Assembly: GCF_001425785.1 (NCBI RefSeq)
Contig: NZ_LMDI01000007.1
Location: 1-64,000 of the forward strand
Length of the DNA: 64,000 bases
Direction: 5' to 3'
Source: Rhizobacter sp. Root1221
GTDB taxonomy: Bacteria; Pseudomonadota; Gammaproteobacteria; Burkholderiales; Burkholderiaceae_C
The first letter of the stretch is position 1. Each line of letters begins with the position of its first letter. The notes under the pieces are model-generated. The model was not told where the DNA came from and did not search any database. It saw only the letters and a program-made list of their open reading frames with translations. The translations under genes and the position numbers were made by a program. Positions 46,175 to 52,217 of this stretch are shown piece after piece.

Positions 46175-49100
46175 ATGCAAGTACGACTGCTGCGCTGCGG
46201 TGCGGCAATGATGACGCTCGGCCTGCTGGCCAGCTGCGGGGGAGGAGACGACACGGGCGAACCGGCCCCGATGACATCCAGCCGAAAGACGGTGCTCAGC
46301 ATGGCGGCTCCGATGCAGGCCCAATGGTCCGAGCCGATCCCGCTGTCGCTGGTGCCGGCCGCCGCCGCCAACCTGCCCGACGGCAAGCTGCTCTTGTGGT
46401 CGGCACAGGCGCGTTTCAGTTTCAAGACGGCGCCGGGCAGCACCTATACCGCGGTGTTCGATCCGGCCACGGGCGAAAGCGTCGAACGGCTGGCCACCGA
46501 GAACAACCACAACATGTTCTGCCCGGGCACGGCGAACCTCCCGGACGGCCGCCTGCTCGTCAGCGGCGGCTCCAGCAGCGGGGCCACCAGCATCTACGAC
46601 CCGGTGCTGGGCACCTGGACCAGCGCCTCGGCGATGAACATCGGGCGCGCCTACCATGCCAGCGTGCCACTGGCCGACGGCTCGGTGTTCGCACTCGGCG
46701 GCTCGTGGAACGGTGGGCAGGGCAACAAGCACGCCGAAGTGTGGACCGCTGCCGGCGGCTGGCGGCGCCTGACCGGCGTGCCCGTGGACCCGATGGTCGG
46801 CCCCGACCCGGCCGGCGTCTACCGCGGCGACAACCACATGTGGCTGATCCCGACCGGCAACGGCCGCGTCCTGCATGCCGGCCCGAGCAGCGACATGCAC
46901 TGGATCGACACCCGAGGCAACGGCGCCATCACGCCGGCAGGAACGCGCGGCGACGACACCTACGCGATCAACGGCTCGACCGTGATGTACGACGCCGGCA
47001 AGATCCTGAAGACGGGTGGCGCGGCGGCTTACGAAAACGCCGACGCCACCGCCACGACCTACCTGATCGACACCACCGGGGGCAGTGCCAGCGTGCGCCG
47101 GCTCGCGCCGATGGCCTATGCGCGCGCCTACCACAACAGCGTCGTGCTGCCCAACGGACAAGTGATGATCGTCGGCGGCATGAGCTACCCGGTGCCCTTC
47201 TCCGACAGCCGCTCGGTGCTCGTGCCCGAACTGTGGGACCCCGTCACCGAGACCTTCACGCCGCTGCCGGCGATGAGCGTGCCGCGCAACTACCACAGCA
47301 CCGCGTTGCTGCTGCCCGATGGGCGGGTAGCCTCGATCGGCGGCGGCCTGTGCGGCAACGGCTGTTCCGGCAACCACGCCAATCTGCAGATCTTCACGCC
47401 GCCCTACTTGCTTGACGCCCAGGGCCAGCCGGCCGTGCGGCCCGTCATCACCGAGGCCGCGGCCGAAGCGGGCTACGGCACGCACATGACGGTGGCCACG
47501 GACTCGGCCGTCAACGCGTTCGCACTCGTGCGCCTGTCGTCGACGACGCACACCGTCAACAACGACCAGCGCCGCATCGCGCTCACGTCCACCCCGCTCG
47601 GCGACAACCGCTACGCGCTCGCCATCCCGAGCAACCCCGGCATCGCGCTGCCCGGCATGTACATGCTGTTCGCGCTCGATGCCGCCGGTGTCCCTTCGGT
47701 GGCCAGGACACTGCGCATCGCCGGCGAGAAAACGCCGCTGCTGACCGCCCCCGGCGACCAGACCTCGGTGGCGGGCAACAACACATCGCTGCAGCTCATC
47801 GCCTCCGGTGCCGGAACGATCGCCTATGGTGCCATGGGCCTGCCCGACGGCCTGACGCTCGACAGTGCCAGCGGCATCATCGCCGGCACCCCGACAACGC
47901 CCGGCAGCCACCCCGTCAAGCTGACGGCTGTCAATGCGAATGGCGCCGTCAGCACCAACCTGGTCTGGACGGTGCAGCCCTCCGGCACGGTCGCCACACG
48001 CTACGTCAAGTTCGAGGCGCTGTCAGAAATGCAGGGTCGCCGGTGGACGTCGGTGGCCGAGTTCAACCTGCTCGACCCGGGCGGCGCCATCATCCCGCGC
48101 GACGGCTGGAAGATCAGCGCCGACAGCCAGGAAACGCGAGGCGAGTACGCGCCGGCGGGCAACGCGATCGACGGCAACACCGCCACCTATTGGCACACCC
48201 AGTGGCAGAACGGGAACCCGGCGCCGCCACACACGCTGGTGATCGACCTCGGCGTCGCCCGGCCGATCGGCGGTTTGCGCTACCTCGCGCGGCAGCGCTC
48301 CGACCTCGGGCACATCGCCAAGTGGCGGCTGCACGTCAGCAGCGACGGCGTGAACTGGCGCGCGGTGGCCTCGGGCACCTTCCTGAAAGACGCCGCCGAC
48401 ACAACCGTCTACCCGATCGACACCGGCGCTGCGAACGCCTGGCCCGAATTGCAGGCGCCCGCGAACCCGACCGTCACCGTGGGCGACGCGGTGACGCTGC
48501 CGCTCGCCGCGAGCGATGCCGACGGCGACACGCTGAGCCATGCAGTGTCCAACTTGCCGCCAGGGCTGACGGTCAACGCCGTCACCGGCCTGGTCAGCGG
48601 CACGCCCACAGCCACCGGCGTCTTTTCCTCGACCGTGCTCGCCAGCGACGGACGCGGCGGCACGGCCACGGCACCGCTCACCTGGACGGTGCTCAAACGC
48701 AGCGTCACCATCGACCCGGTCGCCGCTGCACCGTCGGGCGCTGGCAAGACCGTGACTTACAGCGCGAGCGCGAATGGCGGCCTGGGCGCAACCTGGGCCT
48801 GGGACTTCGGTGACGGCACCGCGATCGACACCTCGAGCCACGCCACCGCCACCCACACCTACACCACGTCCGGCCTGTACACCGTCACCGTGGCGGTCAC
48901 CGACGCCAGCGGCGCCCGGACGGTGCGCCAGTTCACCCAGGCCGTGTACGGCGCGCCATCGAACACCCTGCGTGCGACGCAGTCGGGCAAGGTCGCGTGG
49001 GAGACCCCGGCCAGCGGCAACCCACGCGTGTGGGTGGTCAACGCCGACGGCGACACGGTCAGCGTCTTCGATGCCGTCTCGCTCACCAAGCTCGGCGAAG

Positions 49101-51235
49101 TGGCGGTGGGCACGGCGCCTCGCAGCGCGGCGCTCGCACCGGACGGCCGGCTGTGGGTGGTCAATCAAGAGGGTGCCAGCCTCAGCCTCATCGACACCAG
49201 GACGCTCACGGTCGCGCGGACAATTCCCCTGCCGCGCGCGAGCCAGCCGCATGGCATCGCCTTCGCGCCGAATGGCAGTGCGGCCTACGTCGCACTCGAA
49301 GCCAGCGGCCAACTGCTGAAGCTCGACGCCTCCACCGGCACGACGCTGGCAACGCTGGCCGTCGGCCCCCACCCGCGGCACTTGGCCGTGACGCCCGACA
49401 GCGCCCGCATCCTGGTGTCGCGGTTCATCACACCGCCACAGCCCGGCGAGGGAACCGCCCGCGTCGCAACGCAGCGCGACGGCGCCAGCGTGGGCGGCGA
49501 AGTCCTGGTCGTCGCGGCCGCATCGTTCGCGATCGAACGCACGGTGGTACTGCAGCACAGCGCCAAGGCCGACAGCACGACGCAGGGCCGCGGCGTGCCG
49601 AACTACCTCGGCGCACCGGTCATCTCGCCGGATGGTGCGAGCGCCTGGGTGCCGTCCAAGCAAGACAACATCCAGCGCGGCACGCTTCGCGACGGACAGA
49701 ACCTGGACTTCCAGAACACCGTGCGGGCGATCAGTTCACGCATCGACCTGGCGAGCCTCGCGGAGGACCACGCGTCACGCATCGACCACGACAACGCGGG
49801 GCTGGCCAGCGCGGCGGCGTACCACCCGACCGGCGCCTACCTGTTCGTCGCGCTGCCGACGAGCCGGCAGGTGGCGATCGTCGATCCGTTCAAGCAGCTG
49901 GAGGTGGCGCGCATCGAGGTGGGCCGCGCACCCGACGCGCTGCTGGTCTCGAACGACGGCATGCGCCTGTTCGTCTCGAATTTCATGGACCGCACGCTTC
50001 AGGCGATCGACCTCTCGCGCCTGGTGGGCTACGGCGAATGGCACTTCGCGACGCTGGCCACGCTGCCGGCGCAGGCGATCGAGCGGCTCGGCGCACAGGT
50101 ACTGATCGGCAAGCAGCTCTTCTACGATGCGCGAGACCCACGTCTCGCCCGCGATGGGTACATGAGCTGCGCCAGCTGCCACGACGGCGGCGGCCATGAC
50201 GGCCGCGTCTGGGACATCACCGGCCTGGGCGAAGGCCTGCGCAACACGATCAACCTGCGCGGGCGTGCAGGCATGGGCCACGGCCGGCTGCACTGGAGCG
50301 GCAACTTCGACGAAGTGCAGGACTTCGAGGGGCAGATCCGCAGCCTGGCTGGCGGCACGGGCCTGTTGAGCGACGCGCTCTTCAACACCGGCACGCGCAG
50401 TCAGCCGTTGGGCACGGCCAAGAAGGGCCAGGGCAATGACCTCGACGCGCTGGCGGCCTACGTGGCCTCGCTGAACGCGACGGCCGCAAGCGTGGATCGC
50501 ACGGGCGCGGGTGCGCTGACCGCCGCCGCCAGCGCGGGCCGAGGCGTGTTCATCGCGCAGCAGTGTGGCAGTTGCCACGGAGGCACCACGTTCGCGAACA
50601 GCGGCATGCTGCTGGTGGACATCGGCACGATCAAGCCGGGCAGCGGCAAGCGCCTGGGTGCTGCCCTCCCCGGGATCGACGTGCCGACGCTGCGCGACGT
50701 GCACGGCACCGCACCGTATCTGCACGACGGCTCGGCTGCCACGCTCGGCGCGGCGGTGCTCGCGCACCGTGGCGTCGCGCTGGGCAGCGAGGACTTGTCC
50801 AACCTGGTCGCCTACCTCGATCAGATCGGCAGCGAGGAAGCCGCTGCGCCGGTCGGCCTGCCCCAGGACGCGGTGCACTGCGCAGCGGAGCGTGGCACCT
50901 GCACGCTTCCCGCGGGCACACCGGCCACGGTGTACTACGGCGCCAAGGACCAGTGGTTCAGCCGCTCGGCGATGCGTGGTGCGGTCGCGTGCAGCAACGC
51001 CACCTTCAGCGACCCGCTGTACGGCACCACCAAGGCCTGCTACTACGTGCCGGCGGTGAAGTGCTCGGACGAAGGTGGCAACTGCACGGTGCCCGCGGGC
51101 AGCAGCGCCAGCATCCTGTACGGCACGAACGGTTCGTACTACCAGCGCACCGGGGTCCAGGGGGACATCGCGTGCAGCAACGCGATCTTCGGCGACCCGC
51201 TGTTCGGATCGGCCAAGGCGTGCTGGCGCCAATGA
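46175..51235 (+). CDS. Galactose-oxidase-type copper radical oxidase fused to a di-heme peroxidase-like domain (lipoprotein)
   Basis: Encodes 1686 residues. Lipobox L-L-A-S-C puts the lipid on Cys21. Residues ~50-515 match galactose oxidase closely: Cys116 (M-F-C-P-G) and Tyr160 (R-A-Y-H) are the thioether pair, Trp178 (G-G-S-W) the stacking Trp, Tyr373/His374 (N-Y-H-S) and His459 (T-T-H-T-V-N) the copper ligands. Then come an Ig-like domain (~518-602), an F5/8C discoidin domain (~605-750), a cadherin-like domain (~755-840), a PKD domain (~842-925, W-D-F-G-D-G), a YVTN propeller (~945-1295) and a MauG/cytochrome-c-peroxidase-like region (~1305-1545). The last has hemes at C1332-A-S-C-H and C1464-G-S-C-H and P-T-L-R-D-V-x-G-T-A-P-Y-L-H-D-G-S. 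Two ~60-residue Cys-rich repeats end the protein. GGAAGG precedes the ATG. The stop overlaps the next gene by 4 bases. Confidence 0.88.
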   Translation: MQVRLLRCGAAMMTLGLLASCGGGDDTGEPAPMTSSRKTVLSMAAPMQAQWSEPIPLSLVPAAAANLPDGKLLLWSAQARFSFKTAPGSTYTAVFDPATGESVERLATENNHNMFCPGTANLPDGRLLVSGGSSSGATSIYDPVLGTWTSASAMNIGRAYHASVPLADGSVFALGGSWNGGQGNKHAEVWTAAGGWRRLTGVPVDPMVGPDPAGVYRGDNHMWLIPTGNGRVLHAGPSSDMHWIDTRGNGAITPAGTRGDDTYAINGSTVMYDAGKILKTGGAAAYENADATATTYLIDTTGGSASVRRLAPMAYARAYHNSVVLPNGQVMIVGGMSYPVPFSDSRSVLVPELWDPVTETFTPLPAMSVPRNYHSTALLLPDGRVASIGGGLCGNGCSGNHANLQIFTPPYLLDAQGQPAVRPVITEAAAEAGYGTHMTVATDSAVNAFALVRLSSTTHTVNNDQRRIALTSTPLGDNRYALAIPSNPGIALPGMYMLFALDAAGVPSVARTLRIAGEKTPLLTAPGDQTSVAGNNTSLQLIASGAGTIAYGAMGLPDGLTLDSASGIIAGTPTTPGSHPVKLTAVNANGAVSTNLVWTVQPSGTVATRYVKFEALSEMQGRRWTSVAEFNLLDPGGAIIPRDGWKISADSQETRGEYAPAGNAIDGNTATYWHTQWQNGNPAPPHTLVIDLGVARPIGGLRYLARQRSDLGHIAKWRLHVSSDGVNWRAVASGTFLKDAADTTVYPIDTGAANAWPELQAPANPTVTVGDAVTLPLAASDADGDTLSHAVSNLPPGLTVNAVTGLVSGTPTATGVFSSTVLASDGRGGTATAPLTWTVLKRSVTIDPVAAAPSGAGKTVTYSASANGGLGATWAWDFGDGTAIDTSSHATATHTYTTSGLYTVTVAVTDASGARTVRQFTQAVYGAPSNTLRATQSGKVAWETPASGNPRVWVVNADGDTVSVFDAVSLTKLGEVAVGTAPRSAALAPDGRLWVVNQEGASLSLIDTRTLTVARTIPLPRASQPHGIAFAPNGSAAYVALEASGQLLKLDASTGTTLATLAVGPHPRHLAVTPDSARILVSRFITPPQPGEGTARVATQRDGASVGGEVLVVAAASFAIERTVVLQHSAKADSTTQGRGVPNYLGAPVISPDGASAWVPSKQDNIQRGTLRDGQNLDFQNTVRAISSRIDLASLAEDHASRIDHDNAGLASAAAYHPTGAYLFVALPTSRQVAIVDPFKQLEVARIEVGRAPDALLVSNDGMRLFVSNFMDRTLQAIDLSRLVGYGEWHFATLATLPAQAIERLGAQVLIGKQLFYDARDPRLARDGYMSCASCHDGGGHDGRVWDITGLGEGLRNTINLRGRAGMGHGRLHWSGNFDEVQDFEGQIRSLAGGTGLLSDALFNTGTRSQPLGTAKKGQGNDLDALAAYVASLNATAASVDRTGAGALTAAASAGRGVFIAQQCGSCHGGTTFANSGMLLVDIGTIKPGSGKRLGAALPGIDVPTLRDVHGTAPYLHDGSAATLGAAVLAHRGVALGSEDLSNLVAYLDQIGSEEAAAPVGLPQDAVHCAAERGTCTLPAGTPATVYYGAKDQWFSRSAMRGAVACSNATFSDPLYGTTKACYYVPAVKCSDEGGNCTVPAGSSASILYGTNGSYYQRTGVQGDIACSNAIFGDPLFGSAKACWRQ

Positions 51236-51672
51236 CCTCGCGCACGACCACGGGCCTTGCCGCGCTGGCCCTGTTCAGCGCCATGTTGCAGGGTGCCTGG
51301 GCGCAGGGTGATGGCGCCCTCGGTGCGCAGCTGTTCGACGGCCGCGCGGCCCTGCCCGCACAACTCACCGGGCGGGGCCTGGCGCTGCCAGTCACCGCGA
51401 GCCGTTGCGCGAACTGCCATCGCCGCGACGGCCCCGCGACCGCGGCACCGGCCGCGCCCAGCTTCGGCCCGCCGCTGACGGCCGCGTCCCTGCGCAAACG
51501 CCAGCCGCGGCGCGGCGGCCCGGCATCGAACTATGACAACGCCTCGTTCTGCCGGCTGCTGCGCACCGGCATCGACCCGGCCTTCGTGCTCATTGACGAG
51601 CGCATGCCTCGCTACACGGCGACCGACGCACAGTGCGCGGCGCTCTGGGTCTACCTCGGCGGTTCGTCATGA
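51232..51672 (+). CDS. Exported mono-heme cytochrome c
   Basis: Encodes 146 residues. A signal peptide ends near A-W-A-Q; the single heme motif is C59-A-N-C-H63, and Met125 in D-E-R-M-P-R-Y is the likely axial ligand. Two extra Cys (S-F-C-R, A-Q-C-A) could form a disulfide. The ATG overlaps the upstream TGA (ATGA), so it is translationally coupled to the oxidase fusion. It is the likely electron donor to, or acceptor from, the di-heme domain of the fusion protein. Confidence 0.82.
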   Translation: MTSRTTTGLAALALFSAMLQGAWAQGDGALGAQLFDGRAALPAQLTGRGLALPVTASRCANCHRRDGPATAAPAAPSFGPPLTAASLRKRQPRRGGPASNYDNASFCRLLRTGIDPAFVLIDERMPRYTATDAQCAALWVYLGGSS

Positions 51673-52217
51673 AGCGCCGGCACCTGCTGGCTGCGCTCGC
51701 GTCCGCGCCGTTCGCGGCACGCGGGCATGATCCCTTCGGCCGTGTCGACCCGCCGAAGCCCGCGCCGCGGCTGCCACTGCGATGTGCCGACGGCTCGCTT
51801 CGCGACTTCGGCGAACGGCTGCGGGGGCACACCACCGCGGTCCAGCTGATGTTCACGACGTGCAGCGCCGTCTGCCCGATCCAGGGGGCGCTCTTTGCTG
51901 CCGTCGCGGCTCAACTCCAGGGCGGCGACGCGCGCCTGCTCTCGCTGAGCATCGACCCGCTGAACGACGACCCACGGGCCCTTGCCGCGTGGCTCGCACG
52001 CTTCGGCGCCGCACCCGCCTGGCAGGCCGCGGCGCCACGCCTCGCCGACGTCGACCGCTTGTTCGACCTGCTCAATGGCCGTGCCCCGGGGCCCGACCGC
52101 CACAGCACCCAGGTCTATCTGTTCGATCGCCGGGCGCGACTGGTGTACCGCACGCCCGAACTGCCGAAGGTGGCACATGTGGTCGAGATGCTGCGCGAGG
52201 TAGCGCGCACCTCTTGA
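51669..52217 (+). CDS. Sco1/SenC-type copper chaperone
   Basis: Encodes 182 residues. A signal peptide with an R-R motif precedes a thioredoxin-like fold. The copper site is Cys65 and Cys69 in F-T-T-C-S-A-V-C-P with His145 in R-H-S-T-Q-V-Y-L-F-D, the classical Sco C-x3-C...H set. L-S-I-D-P-L-N-D-D matches Sco S-V-D-P-x-x-D. Sco proteins usually metallate cytochrome oxidase CuA; no such gene is here. The ATG overlaps the stop of the cytochrome gene, so the likely client is the copper radical oxidase of the same operon. Confidence 0.85.
   Translation: MKRRHLLAALASAPFAARGHDPFGRVDPPKPAPRLPLRCADGSLRDFGERLRGHTTAVQLMFTTCSAVCPIQGALFAAVAAQLQGGDARLLSLSIDPLNDDPRALAAWLARFGAAPAWQAAAPRLADVDRLFDLLNGRAPGPDRHSTQVYLFDRRARLVYRTPELPKVAHVVEMLREVARTS

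What the first reader, a model, noticed from the sequence alone, without database searches (positions are those of the whole stretch)
46175..52217. Copper radical oxidase fused to a di-heme peroxidase-like domain, in an operon with a cytochrome c and a copper chaperone
Seen: one open frame joins a galactose-oxidase domain with all active-site residues (Cys116, Tyr160, Trp178, Tyr373, His374, His459) to a YVTN propeller and a region with two CxxCH motifs and the MauG/peroxidase P-T-L-R...A-P-Y-x-H-D-G-S signature. It is followed by a mono-heme cytochrome c and a Sco chaperone, each joined by an ATGA overlap. Known: galactose oxidase makes H2O2 while oxidising primary alcohols of sugars, and di-heme peroxidases reduce H2O2 with electrons from cytochrome c. 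Inference: the system oxidises an extracellular sugar and either consumes its own peroxide or passes electrons to the cytochrome chain. I know of no characterised protein with this combination.
Basis: partly seen in the sequence, partly recalled or inferred. Interest (0 to 1): 0.92.

Follow-up and report, generated by a model that had tools for sequence, protein, structure and literature searches.

The report
Copper-radical oxidase wired to c-hemes
A secreted bacterial galactose-oxidase-type copper enzyme is built in one chain with a two-heme redox module and goes with its own cytochrome c and copper chaperone; if the parts are electrically coupled it would be the first copper-radical enzyme known to me with an on-board heme partner.

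Summary
One 1686-residue frame (46175-51235) carries a galactose-oxidase-type copper radical oxidase (CRO) with all active-site residues, a YVTN propeller and a two-heme CCP/MauG-type domain; a monoheme cytochrome c and a Sco follow with ATGA overlaps. It is no assembly join: the 120 best-listed relatives all carry both halves. The PKD-YVTN-diheme chassis occurs fused to CROs or an LVIVD propeller, or alone. CRO and chassis trees disagree, so different CROs sit on related chassis. Sco neighbours only CRO-fused chassis (17 of 31 against 0 of 33 with enough flank). The cytochrome c (E<=1e-20) is in exactly the 16 of 299 family genomes that hold the window's fusion type. The bCcP/MauG distal Gln-Pro-Glu is absent by alignment and the second heme looks bis-His. 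Best reading: a CRO with an in-cis heme partner that exchanges electrons with a dedicated cytochrome c, most likely to consume or exploit CRO-made H2O2; a cytochrome-linked CRO remains open. No activity is shown. I found no description in the searches made.

The parts
46175..51235 (+). CRO-YVTN-diheme fusion, 1686 aa, with a probable lipoprotein signal (LLASC)
   Evidence: the 120 listed best relatives all carry both the CRO and the diheme domain
46310..47722 (+). copper radical oxidase (galactose-oxidase type) kelch domain plus E-set, residues 46-516
46520..46522 (+). Cys116 (expected Tyr-Cys cross-link partner)
   Evidence: 121/121
46652..46654 (+). Tyr160 (expected Tyr-Cys cofactor)
   Evidence: 121/121
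46706..46708 (+). Trp178 (expected stacking Trp of galactose oxidase)
   Evidence: 118/121; other residues in the CRO-I and CRO-II types
47291..47296 (+). Tyr373-His374 (expected Cu ligands)
   Evidence: 121/121
47549..47551 (+). His459 (expected Cu ligand)
   Evidence: 121/121
48113..48394 (+). discoidin (F5/8 type C) domain, residues 647-740
48737..48931 (+). PKD domain, residues 855-919, start of the conserved chassis
49010..50041 (+). YVTN beta-propeller, residues 946-1289
   Evidence: chassis model pLDDT 92.1, pTM 0.93; Foldseek first hit hydrazine synthase beta 3.4e-19, next a YVTN surface-layer protein 2.8e-18
50075..50842 (+). diheme CCP/MauG-type domain, residues 1301-1556
50168..50182 (+). 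first heme motif CASCH, residues 1332-1336
   Evidence: 121/121
50291..50296 (+). His1373-Trp1374, present in all 94 modules compared (CRO-fused, LVIVD-fused, standalone)
50564..50578 (+). second heme motif CGSCH, residues 1464-1468
   Evidence: 121/121
50765..50767 (+). His1531, aligned with the Met of AVxxM in solved bacterial peroxidases (recalled to be their axial ligand); probable bis-His second heme
   Evidence: alignment; H in 52 of 55 CRO-fused modules
50852..51226 (+). two C-terminal Cys-rich repeats, accessory
   Evidence: 113 to 115 of 121 rows have gaps here; similar stretches elsewhere in the genome
51232..51672 (+). monoheme cytochrome c, 146 aa, probable His/Met (CANCH, MPRY)
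   Evidence: co-occurs with the window's fusion type in 16 of 16 genomes
51669..52217 (+). Sco/SenC copper chaperone, 182 aa

Best explanation
A surface or periplasmic copper-radical alcohol/sugar oxidase carrying its own heme redox partner in cis. Sco loads copper; the Tyr-Cys radical site oxidises a primary alcohol and passes two electrons to O2, making H2O2 (known galactose-oxidase chemistry, not shown here). The YVTN/diheme chassis, whose kin include peroxidases and hydrazine synthase, exchanges electrons with the dedicated cytochrome c through the C-terminal, probably bis-His, heme. It uses the N-terminal heme to reduce the enzyme's own H2O2 and/or, once oxidised, to return the copper site to its active radical state. 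Shown by sequence: the parts, the intact CRO residues, conservation of the fusion, use of related chassis by different CROs, and tight co-occurrence with Sco and cytochrome c. Inferred: that hemes and copper are electrically coupled, the direction of flow, and the substrate. My confidence that CRO and chassis are functionally coupled is about 0.8; the number below is for the peroxide-handling or activating role.
For: CRO residues intact in 121 of 121. Cys, Tyr, Tyr, His, His kept in 54 of 55 fused CROs of a wider set (38 loci incl. the window and 17 of the same 121; L018 lacks the Cys). Cytochrome c at E<=1e-20 in 16 of 299 family genomes, the same 16 that hold the window's fusion type (p about 1e-26 if genomes were independent, which they are not). 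Sco adjacent in 13 of 16 window-type loci with at least 1.5 kb on each side, 0 of 28 LVIVD-type. Different CROs on related chassis: all fused CROs as one clade rejected, p-AU 0.015; CRO-I plus CRO-III rejected, p-AU 0.006; the same union not rejected for the chassis, p-AU 0.93. In hydrazine synthase gamma a surface bis-His heme is proposed to take electrons from a cytochrome c and pass them to the active heme (PMC12607021 passages); bCcP runs likewise (general knowledge). CRO-peroxidase partnership is known: a tandem peroxidase activates a fungal CRO (PMC9770985 passages); DtpA and Sco are needed for GlxA maturation under low copper (PMC4736821 passages).
Against: The distal Gln-Pro-Glu described as conserved in bCcP, MauG and BthA (PMC6405878 passages) is not found: by the alignment to 9qdt, Gln falls on F1384, Pro in a gap, Glu on A1392 (low identity there). 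The chassis occurs on LVIVD propellers without any CRO (31 of 78). CRO-I and CRO-II fusions lack this cytochrome c (0 of 11 and 0 of 4). Unfused CROs exist: 11 of 38 E-set matches in 18 chosen genomes lie in frames under 1100 codons, and 4 unfused rows fell inside the fused type III group of the first CRO tree.
Confidence: 0.42

Rival explanations
1. Electron-sink rival: the copper-radical site is reoxidised by the diheme domain instead of (or as well as) O2, and electrons go to the dedicated cytochrome c and the respiratory chain. The enzyme would be a cytochrome-linked alcohol or sugar dehydrogenase.
For: Dedicated cytochrome c; probable bis-His second heme; no canonical peroxide pocket by alignment; within 2.5 kb of LVIVD-type chassis genes lie GSDH (5 of 28), GMC oxidoreductase (4 of 28) and a DeoC-type aldolase (9 of 28), against 0 of 31 CRO-type loci for each. 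GSDH and many GMC enzymes give electrons to acceptors other than O2 (general knowledge).
Against: I know of no CRO reoxidised by heme; CRO-I and CRO-II fusions lack this cytochrome c; GSDH and GMC neighbours are a minority of the LVIVD loci and come from a few close lineages.
Confidence: 0.3
2. Maturation rival: the diheme domain acts once per molecule, MauG-like, to help form the Tyr-Cys cofactor or radical, with Sco supplying copper, as argued for the mtoX-SCO1-mauG and GlxA-Sco-DtpA systems.
For: A Cu enzyme with Sco and a MauG-like gene is a known trio (PMC5739008 passages); GlxA maturation needs Sco and DtpA under low copper (PMC4736821 passages); Sco goes only with CRO-type chassis (plus the truncated L178).
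Against: LVIVD-type chassis branch outside the CRO-type ones in the module tree as rooted at the midpoint, so the chassis probably predates its CROs; galactose oxidase forms its cross-link with copper alone (general knowledge); MauG distal residues missing by alignment.
Confidence: 0.18
3. Scaffold rival: a large surface protein in which CRO and diheme domain sit together for display or attachment but work on different substrates.
For: Discoidin, Ig and PKD spacers of variable number between the halves; lipobox-like motif in 104 of 121 by a simple pattern.
Against: Strict co-occurrence with one cytochrome c, Sco limited to CRO-type, and different CROs on related chassis.
Confidence: 0.1

Closest known systems
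Galactose oxidase (AA5 copper radical oxidase)
   Same: kelch plus E-set domain, all six active-site residues
   Different: those known to me have no heme domain; here it is one half of a longer chain
Streptomyces GlxA with Sco and the DyP peroxidase DtpA (PMC4736821, abstract and passages seen)
   Same: CRO, copper chaperone and a heme peroxidase in one pathway
   Different: separate proteins and a DyP monoheme peroxidase; the heme module here is fused and diheme, with a cytochrome c
Fungal tandem peroxidase-alcohol oxidase (PMC9770985, passages seen)
   Same: heme protein paired with a CRO and activating it
   Different: class II peroxidase, separate genes, fungal
Methanethiol oxidase operon mtoX-SCO1/senC-mauG (PMC5739008, passages seen)
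   Same: copper oxidase, Sco and MauG-like diheme protein together; some Sco-MauG fusions
   Different: the oxidase is SBP56, not a CRO, and is not fused to the diheme protein
Hydrazine synthase beta and gamma subunits
   Same: propeller plus diheme of CCP/MauG type; first Foldseek hit for the propeller; gamma sequence match 2e-9
   Different: NCBIfam beta-gamma fusion model scores 67 against a cut-off of 1250; other reaction; no CRO
AA5 alcohol oxidase fused to an inactive CE3 domain (Mazurkewich 2023; only its title seen, in a reference list; the paper is not held)
   Same: bacterial AA5 fused to another domain
   Different: by its title the partner is an inactive CE3 domain, not a redox domain

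Membership tests
AA5 copper radical oxidase (galactose-oxidase type) | kelch domain plus GO-like E-set | tested here: met
AA5 copper radical oxidase (galactose-oxidase type) | Cys and Tyr of the cofactor, axial Tyr, two His, stacking Trp | tested here: met
   C116, Y160, Y373, H374, H459, W178
AA5 copper radical oxidase (galactose-oxidase type) | Cu, Tyr-Cys thioether and alcohol oxidase activity | not testable with these tools
   needs protein
bCcP/MauG diheme family (PF03150) | two CxxCH with PTLR...APYxHDG and a Pfam match over the cut-off | tested here: met
   (35 against 25.6 bits)
bCcP/MauG diheme family (PF03150) | distal Gln-Pro-Glu of the peroxide-binding heme | tested here: not met
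   alignment to 9qdt: F1384, gap, A1392; low identity in this stretch; feature from PMC6405878 passages
bCcP/MauG diheme family (PF03150) | second-heme axial Met (bCcP) or Tyr (MauG) | tested here: not met
   His1531 at that column; that the column is the axial ligand is recalled
hydrazine synthase beta-gamma | NCBIfam equivalog-type score | tested here: not met
   67 bits against 1250
hydrazine synthase beta-gamma | propeller fold of the beta subunit | tested here: met
hydrazine synthase beta-gamma | third Cys binding heme gamma-I | not tested
   feature from PMC12607021 passages
SCO1/SenC copper chaperone | Pfam match over the cut-off and CxxxC | tested here: met
mtoX-SCO1-mauG system | SBP56/MtoX copper oxidase | tested here: not met
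   the oxidase of this operon is a CRO

The most novel reading that the evidence does not exclude
The first cytochrome-linked copper-radical enzyme: the Cu/Tyr-Cys site passes electrons from a surface sugar or alcohol through a hydrazine-synthase-like diheme chassis to a dedicated cytochrome c, making CRO chemistry a respiratory, partly O2-independent process. The chassis would be a portable electron acceptor used with CRO, PQQ-type and flavin sugar/alcohol oxidoreductases.
Probability: 0.28. Interest if true: 0.88.

Novelty: new variant of a known kind. Interest (0 to 1): 0.74.

Why it matters
How CROs are kept in their active radical state, and what becomes of their H2O2, has so far been answered with separate peroxidases. 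A natural fusion with hemes, a private cytochrome c and a copper chaperone makes the question testable in one polypeptide. It also shows a two-heme chassis with hydrazine-synthase kinship as an exchangeable part in what looks like extracellular sugar or alcohol oxidation, and could offer a ready-made wired enzyme for biosensors and biocatalysis.

Tried and rejected
Assembly join or chance: rejected. Plain bacterial cytochrome c peroxidase: doubted, distal residues not found. Hydrazine synthase itself: score far below cut-off. CROs fused only once: rejected by AU tests, with caveats: the groups were named after a first tree had been seen, the L011 outgroup is a long branch, and one search used 49 of the 98 rows. 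Among the rows left out are four unfused ones (P0124, P0130, P0169, P0172) that fell inside the fused type III group, and two unfused CROs of L133 that fell inside type I. P0124 is a named partial and three of the four sit on contigs under 5 kb, but P0130 is on a 151 kb contig, so unfused or split members exist. In the chassis tree CRO-III appeared nested in CRO-I with FastTree but not clearly in the IQ-TREE search (49 of 94 rows), so I claim only that the CRO-I and CRO-III chassis can form one clade while their CROs cannot. The standalone modules are placed differently.

VIA-align and Foldseek on the chassis model were filled by propellers, so the diheme fold was barely tested. PDB codes 9G43 and 9G8H gave no paper. 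Of 80 loci I used L012-L039 (28); the other 52 matched mostly the PKD part of the query and were left out. Of 2864 homologues I examined the 120 listed. In the Sco/cytochrome counts 14 of 78 chassis proteins with under 1.5 kb on either side were dropped; among them Sco was present beside L144 (CRO-I), L016 (CRO-III) and L178 (truncated), and the cytochrome c beside L016. Literature searches were listings: one paper held all terms and 11 of 11 were listed, but searches listed only 10 to 15 of many.

Full report
OBSERVATION. The frame 46175-51235 is open for 1686 codons and is followed by a 146-aa cytochrome c (51232-51672) and a 182-aa Sco (51669-52217), each overlapping the gene before it by ATGA. 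Domain order from Pfam and profile hits: lipobox, galactose-oxidase kelch and E-set (46-516), Ig (He_PIG) and discoidin spacers, PKD, YVTN propeller (946-1289), diheme CCP/MauG-type domain (1301-1556), two Cys-rich repeats. The CRO part aligns end to end with solved galactose oxidases. In the 121-row alignment (window plus the 120 listed best hits, out of 2864 found) the active-site Cys, Tyr, Tyr, His, His are invariant, Trp is 118/121, and both CxxCH are invariant. All 121 carry both the CRO and the diheme domain.

THE CHASSIS. The same genome encodes two further proteins with this PKD-YVTN-diheme chassis. One (58% identical there, but only 32% in the CRO) joins it to another, GlxA-like CRO and overlaps a Sco gene. 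The other joins it to an LVIVD-like propeller with LamG domains and lies 16 bases from a GMC oxidoreductase gene. Outside, at E<=1e-30, 8 of 300 genomes of the order and 30 of 299 of the family have the chassis. I examined 28 of 80 loci from genome contigs and stretches from those genomes. In the resulting 78 chassis proteins, one from each of 78 loci, 39 are fused to a CRO (14 type I, GlxA-like; 6 type II, from Verrucomicrobiota and Gammaproteobacteria MAGs; 19 type III, window type), 31 to LVIVD, and 8 stand alone. Of those 8, L029, L156 and L178 are cut by contig ends and L028 has a separate LVIVD gene beside it. The type names are mine.

TREES. On CRO domains, type III sits among unfused bacterial galactose oxidases, types I and II elsewhere. 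Four unfused rows (P0124, P0130, P0169, P0172) fall inside type III and two unfused CROs of L133 inside type I; they were not. Holding all fused CROs together is rejected (p-AU 0.015), as is types I plus III (p-AU 0.006). For the chassis, I plus III held together is not rejected (p-AU 0.93), nor are all CRO-type chassis (p-AU 0.63). So different CROs have been combined with related chassis: replacement, or more than one joining. In the 200 family genomes, 13 had a match to a galactose-oxidase-type query at E<=1e-60, and 14 of 14 matches lay in long frames of 1648-2101 codons. Unfused CROs of other kinds do occur: in 18 genomes chosen because they have the chassis, 11 of 38 E-set matches lie in frames under 1100 codons.

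PARTNER GENES. With at least 1.5 kb on both sides (64 of 78), Sco is within 2.5 kb in 13 of 16 type III, 4 of 11 type I, 0 of 4 type II, 0 of 28 LVIVD and 0 of 5 standalone. The window's cytochrome c family is there in 13 of 16 type III and 0 of all others. Fisher tests CRO against non-CRO: Sco p=1.9e-7, cytochrome c p=1.6e-5; shared ancestry is not corrected for. The pair comes in three arrangements (downstream, upstream, divergent), which speaks against mere inheritance of gene order. In 299 family genomes the cytochrome c (E<=1e-20) is in 16, and these are exactly the 16 with a type III fusion; in G501 the CRO is incomplete and the type rests on the chassis tree. In G373 the cytochrome c lies about 490 kb from the fusion on the same contig but still beside a Sco. 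In G464 both the fusion and the cytochrome c-Sco pair lie at contig ends, the pair next to a discoidin-bearing fragment, so they may well be neighbours. In G501 the pair is on another short contig, and the G341 contig is too short to show a Sco. Two weak matches (G572, G264) are longer, different proteins, also beside Sco genes.

MECHANISM. Shown by sequence: an intact CRO, two c-heme motifs, conserved fusion, pairing of related chassis with different CROs, a private cytochrome c and a Sco. Inferred: functional coupling (about 0.8). For the mode, hydrazine synthase gamma is proposed to feed electrons from a cytochrome c through one heme to a small-molecule-reducing heme (PMC12607021 passages), as bCcP does (general knowledge), and CROs make H2O2 and can be activated by peroxidases (PMC9770985 passages; PMC4736821 passages). 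So peroxide handling or activation leads (0.42). The missing distal triad, and the company that LVIVD-type chassis keep (GSDH 5 of 28, GMC 4 of 28, DeoC 9 of 28, against 0 of 31 for CRO-type), favour a general electron acceptor (0.3). A one-time maturation role (0.18), as argued for mtoX-SCO1-mauG (PMC5739008 passages), and mere co-display (0.1) are the others.

KNOWN OR NEW. I found no paper on a CRO fused to hemes in the searches; most were capped listings, and that library lacks most subscription journals and all preprints. Single parts are known kinds; the combination is a new variant. Function, substrate and localisation are untested.

Noticed in passing
L011:5020-10130 (G000:C5): A GlxA-like CRO fused to DUF1326, beside a PpoB2-type (PF09948) copper chaperone gene: another CRO with its own chaperone in the same genome.
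   Followed up: partly
L010:4155-11693 (G000:C32): LVIVD-LamG-YVTN-diheme protein between a DeoC-type aldolase and a GMC oxidoreductase; some similar LVIVD proteins elsewhere neighbour GSDH, GMC or DeoC genes.
   Followed up: partly
L132 (G402:C1:311000-330000): One 2554-aa frame with a single detected CRO and two complete PKD-YVTN-diheme modules in tandem.
   Followed up: no
L018:1393-6393: A CRO-chassis fusion of a Thiotrichaceae MAG that seems to lack the cofactor Cys (Ala in the alignment; DLFAAH in the sequence).
   Followed up: no
L197 and L198 (G572, G264): Distant relatives of the window's cytochrome c inside proteins of about 510 aa, beside Sco genes (in L198 a 520-aa frame with a Sco domain); L197 also has a 645-aa YVTN protein.
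   Followed up: no
L170 (G454:C1:4944500-4961500): A window-type fusion whose diheme part is split over two frames in the chassis match; described only.
   Followed up: no
window 50702-50704: Residue 1510 is His in the window where nearly all relatives have Trp (31 of 34 type III, 15 of 15 type I, 29 of 31 LVIVD).
   Followed up: no
window 50852-51226: The two Cys-rich C-terminal repeats are rare in this family but similar stretches occur in other proteins of the genome (C76, C12, C14).
   Followed up: no
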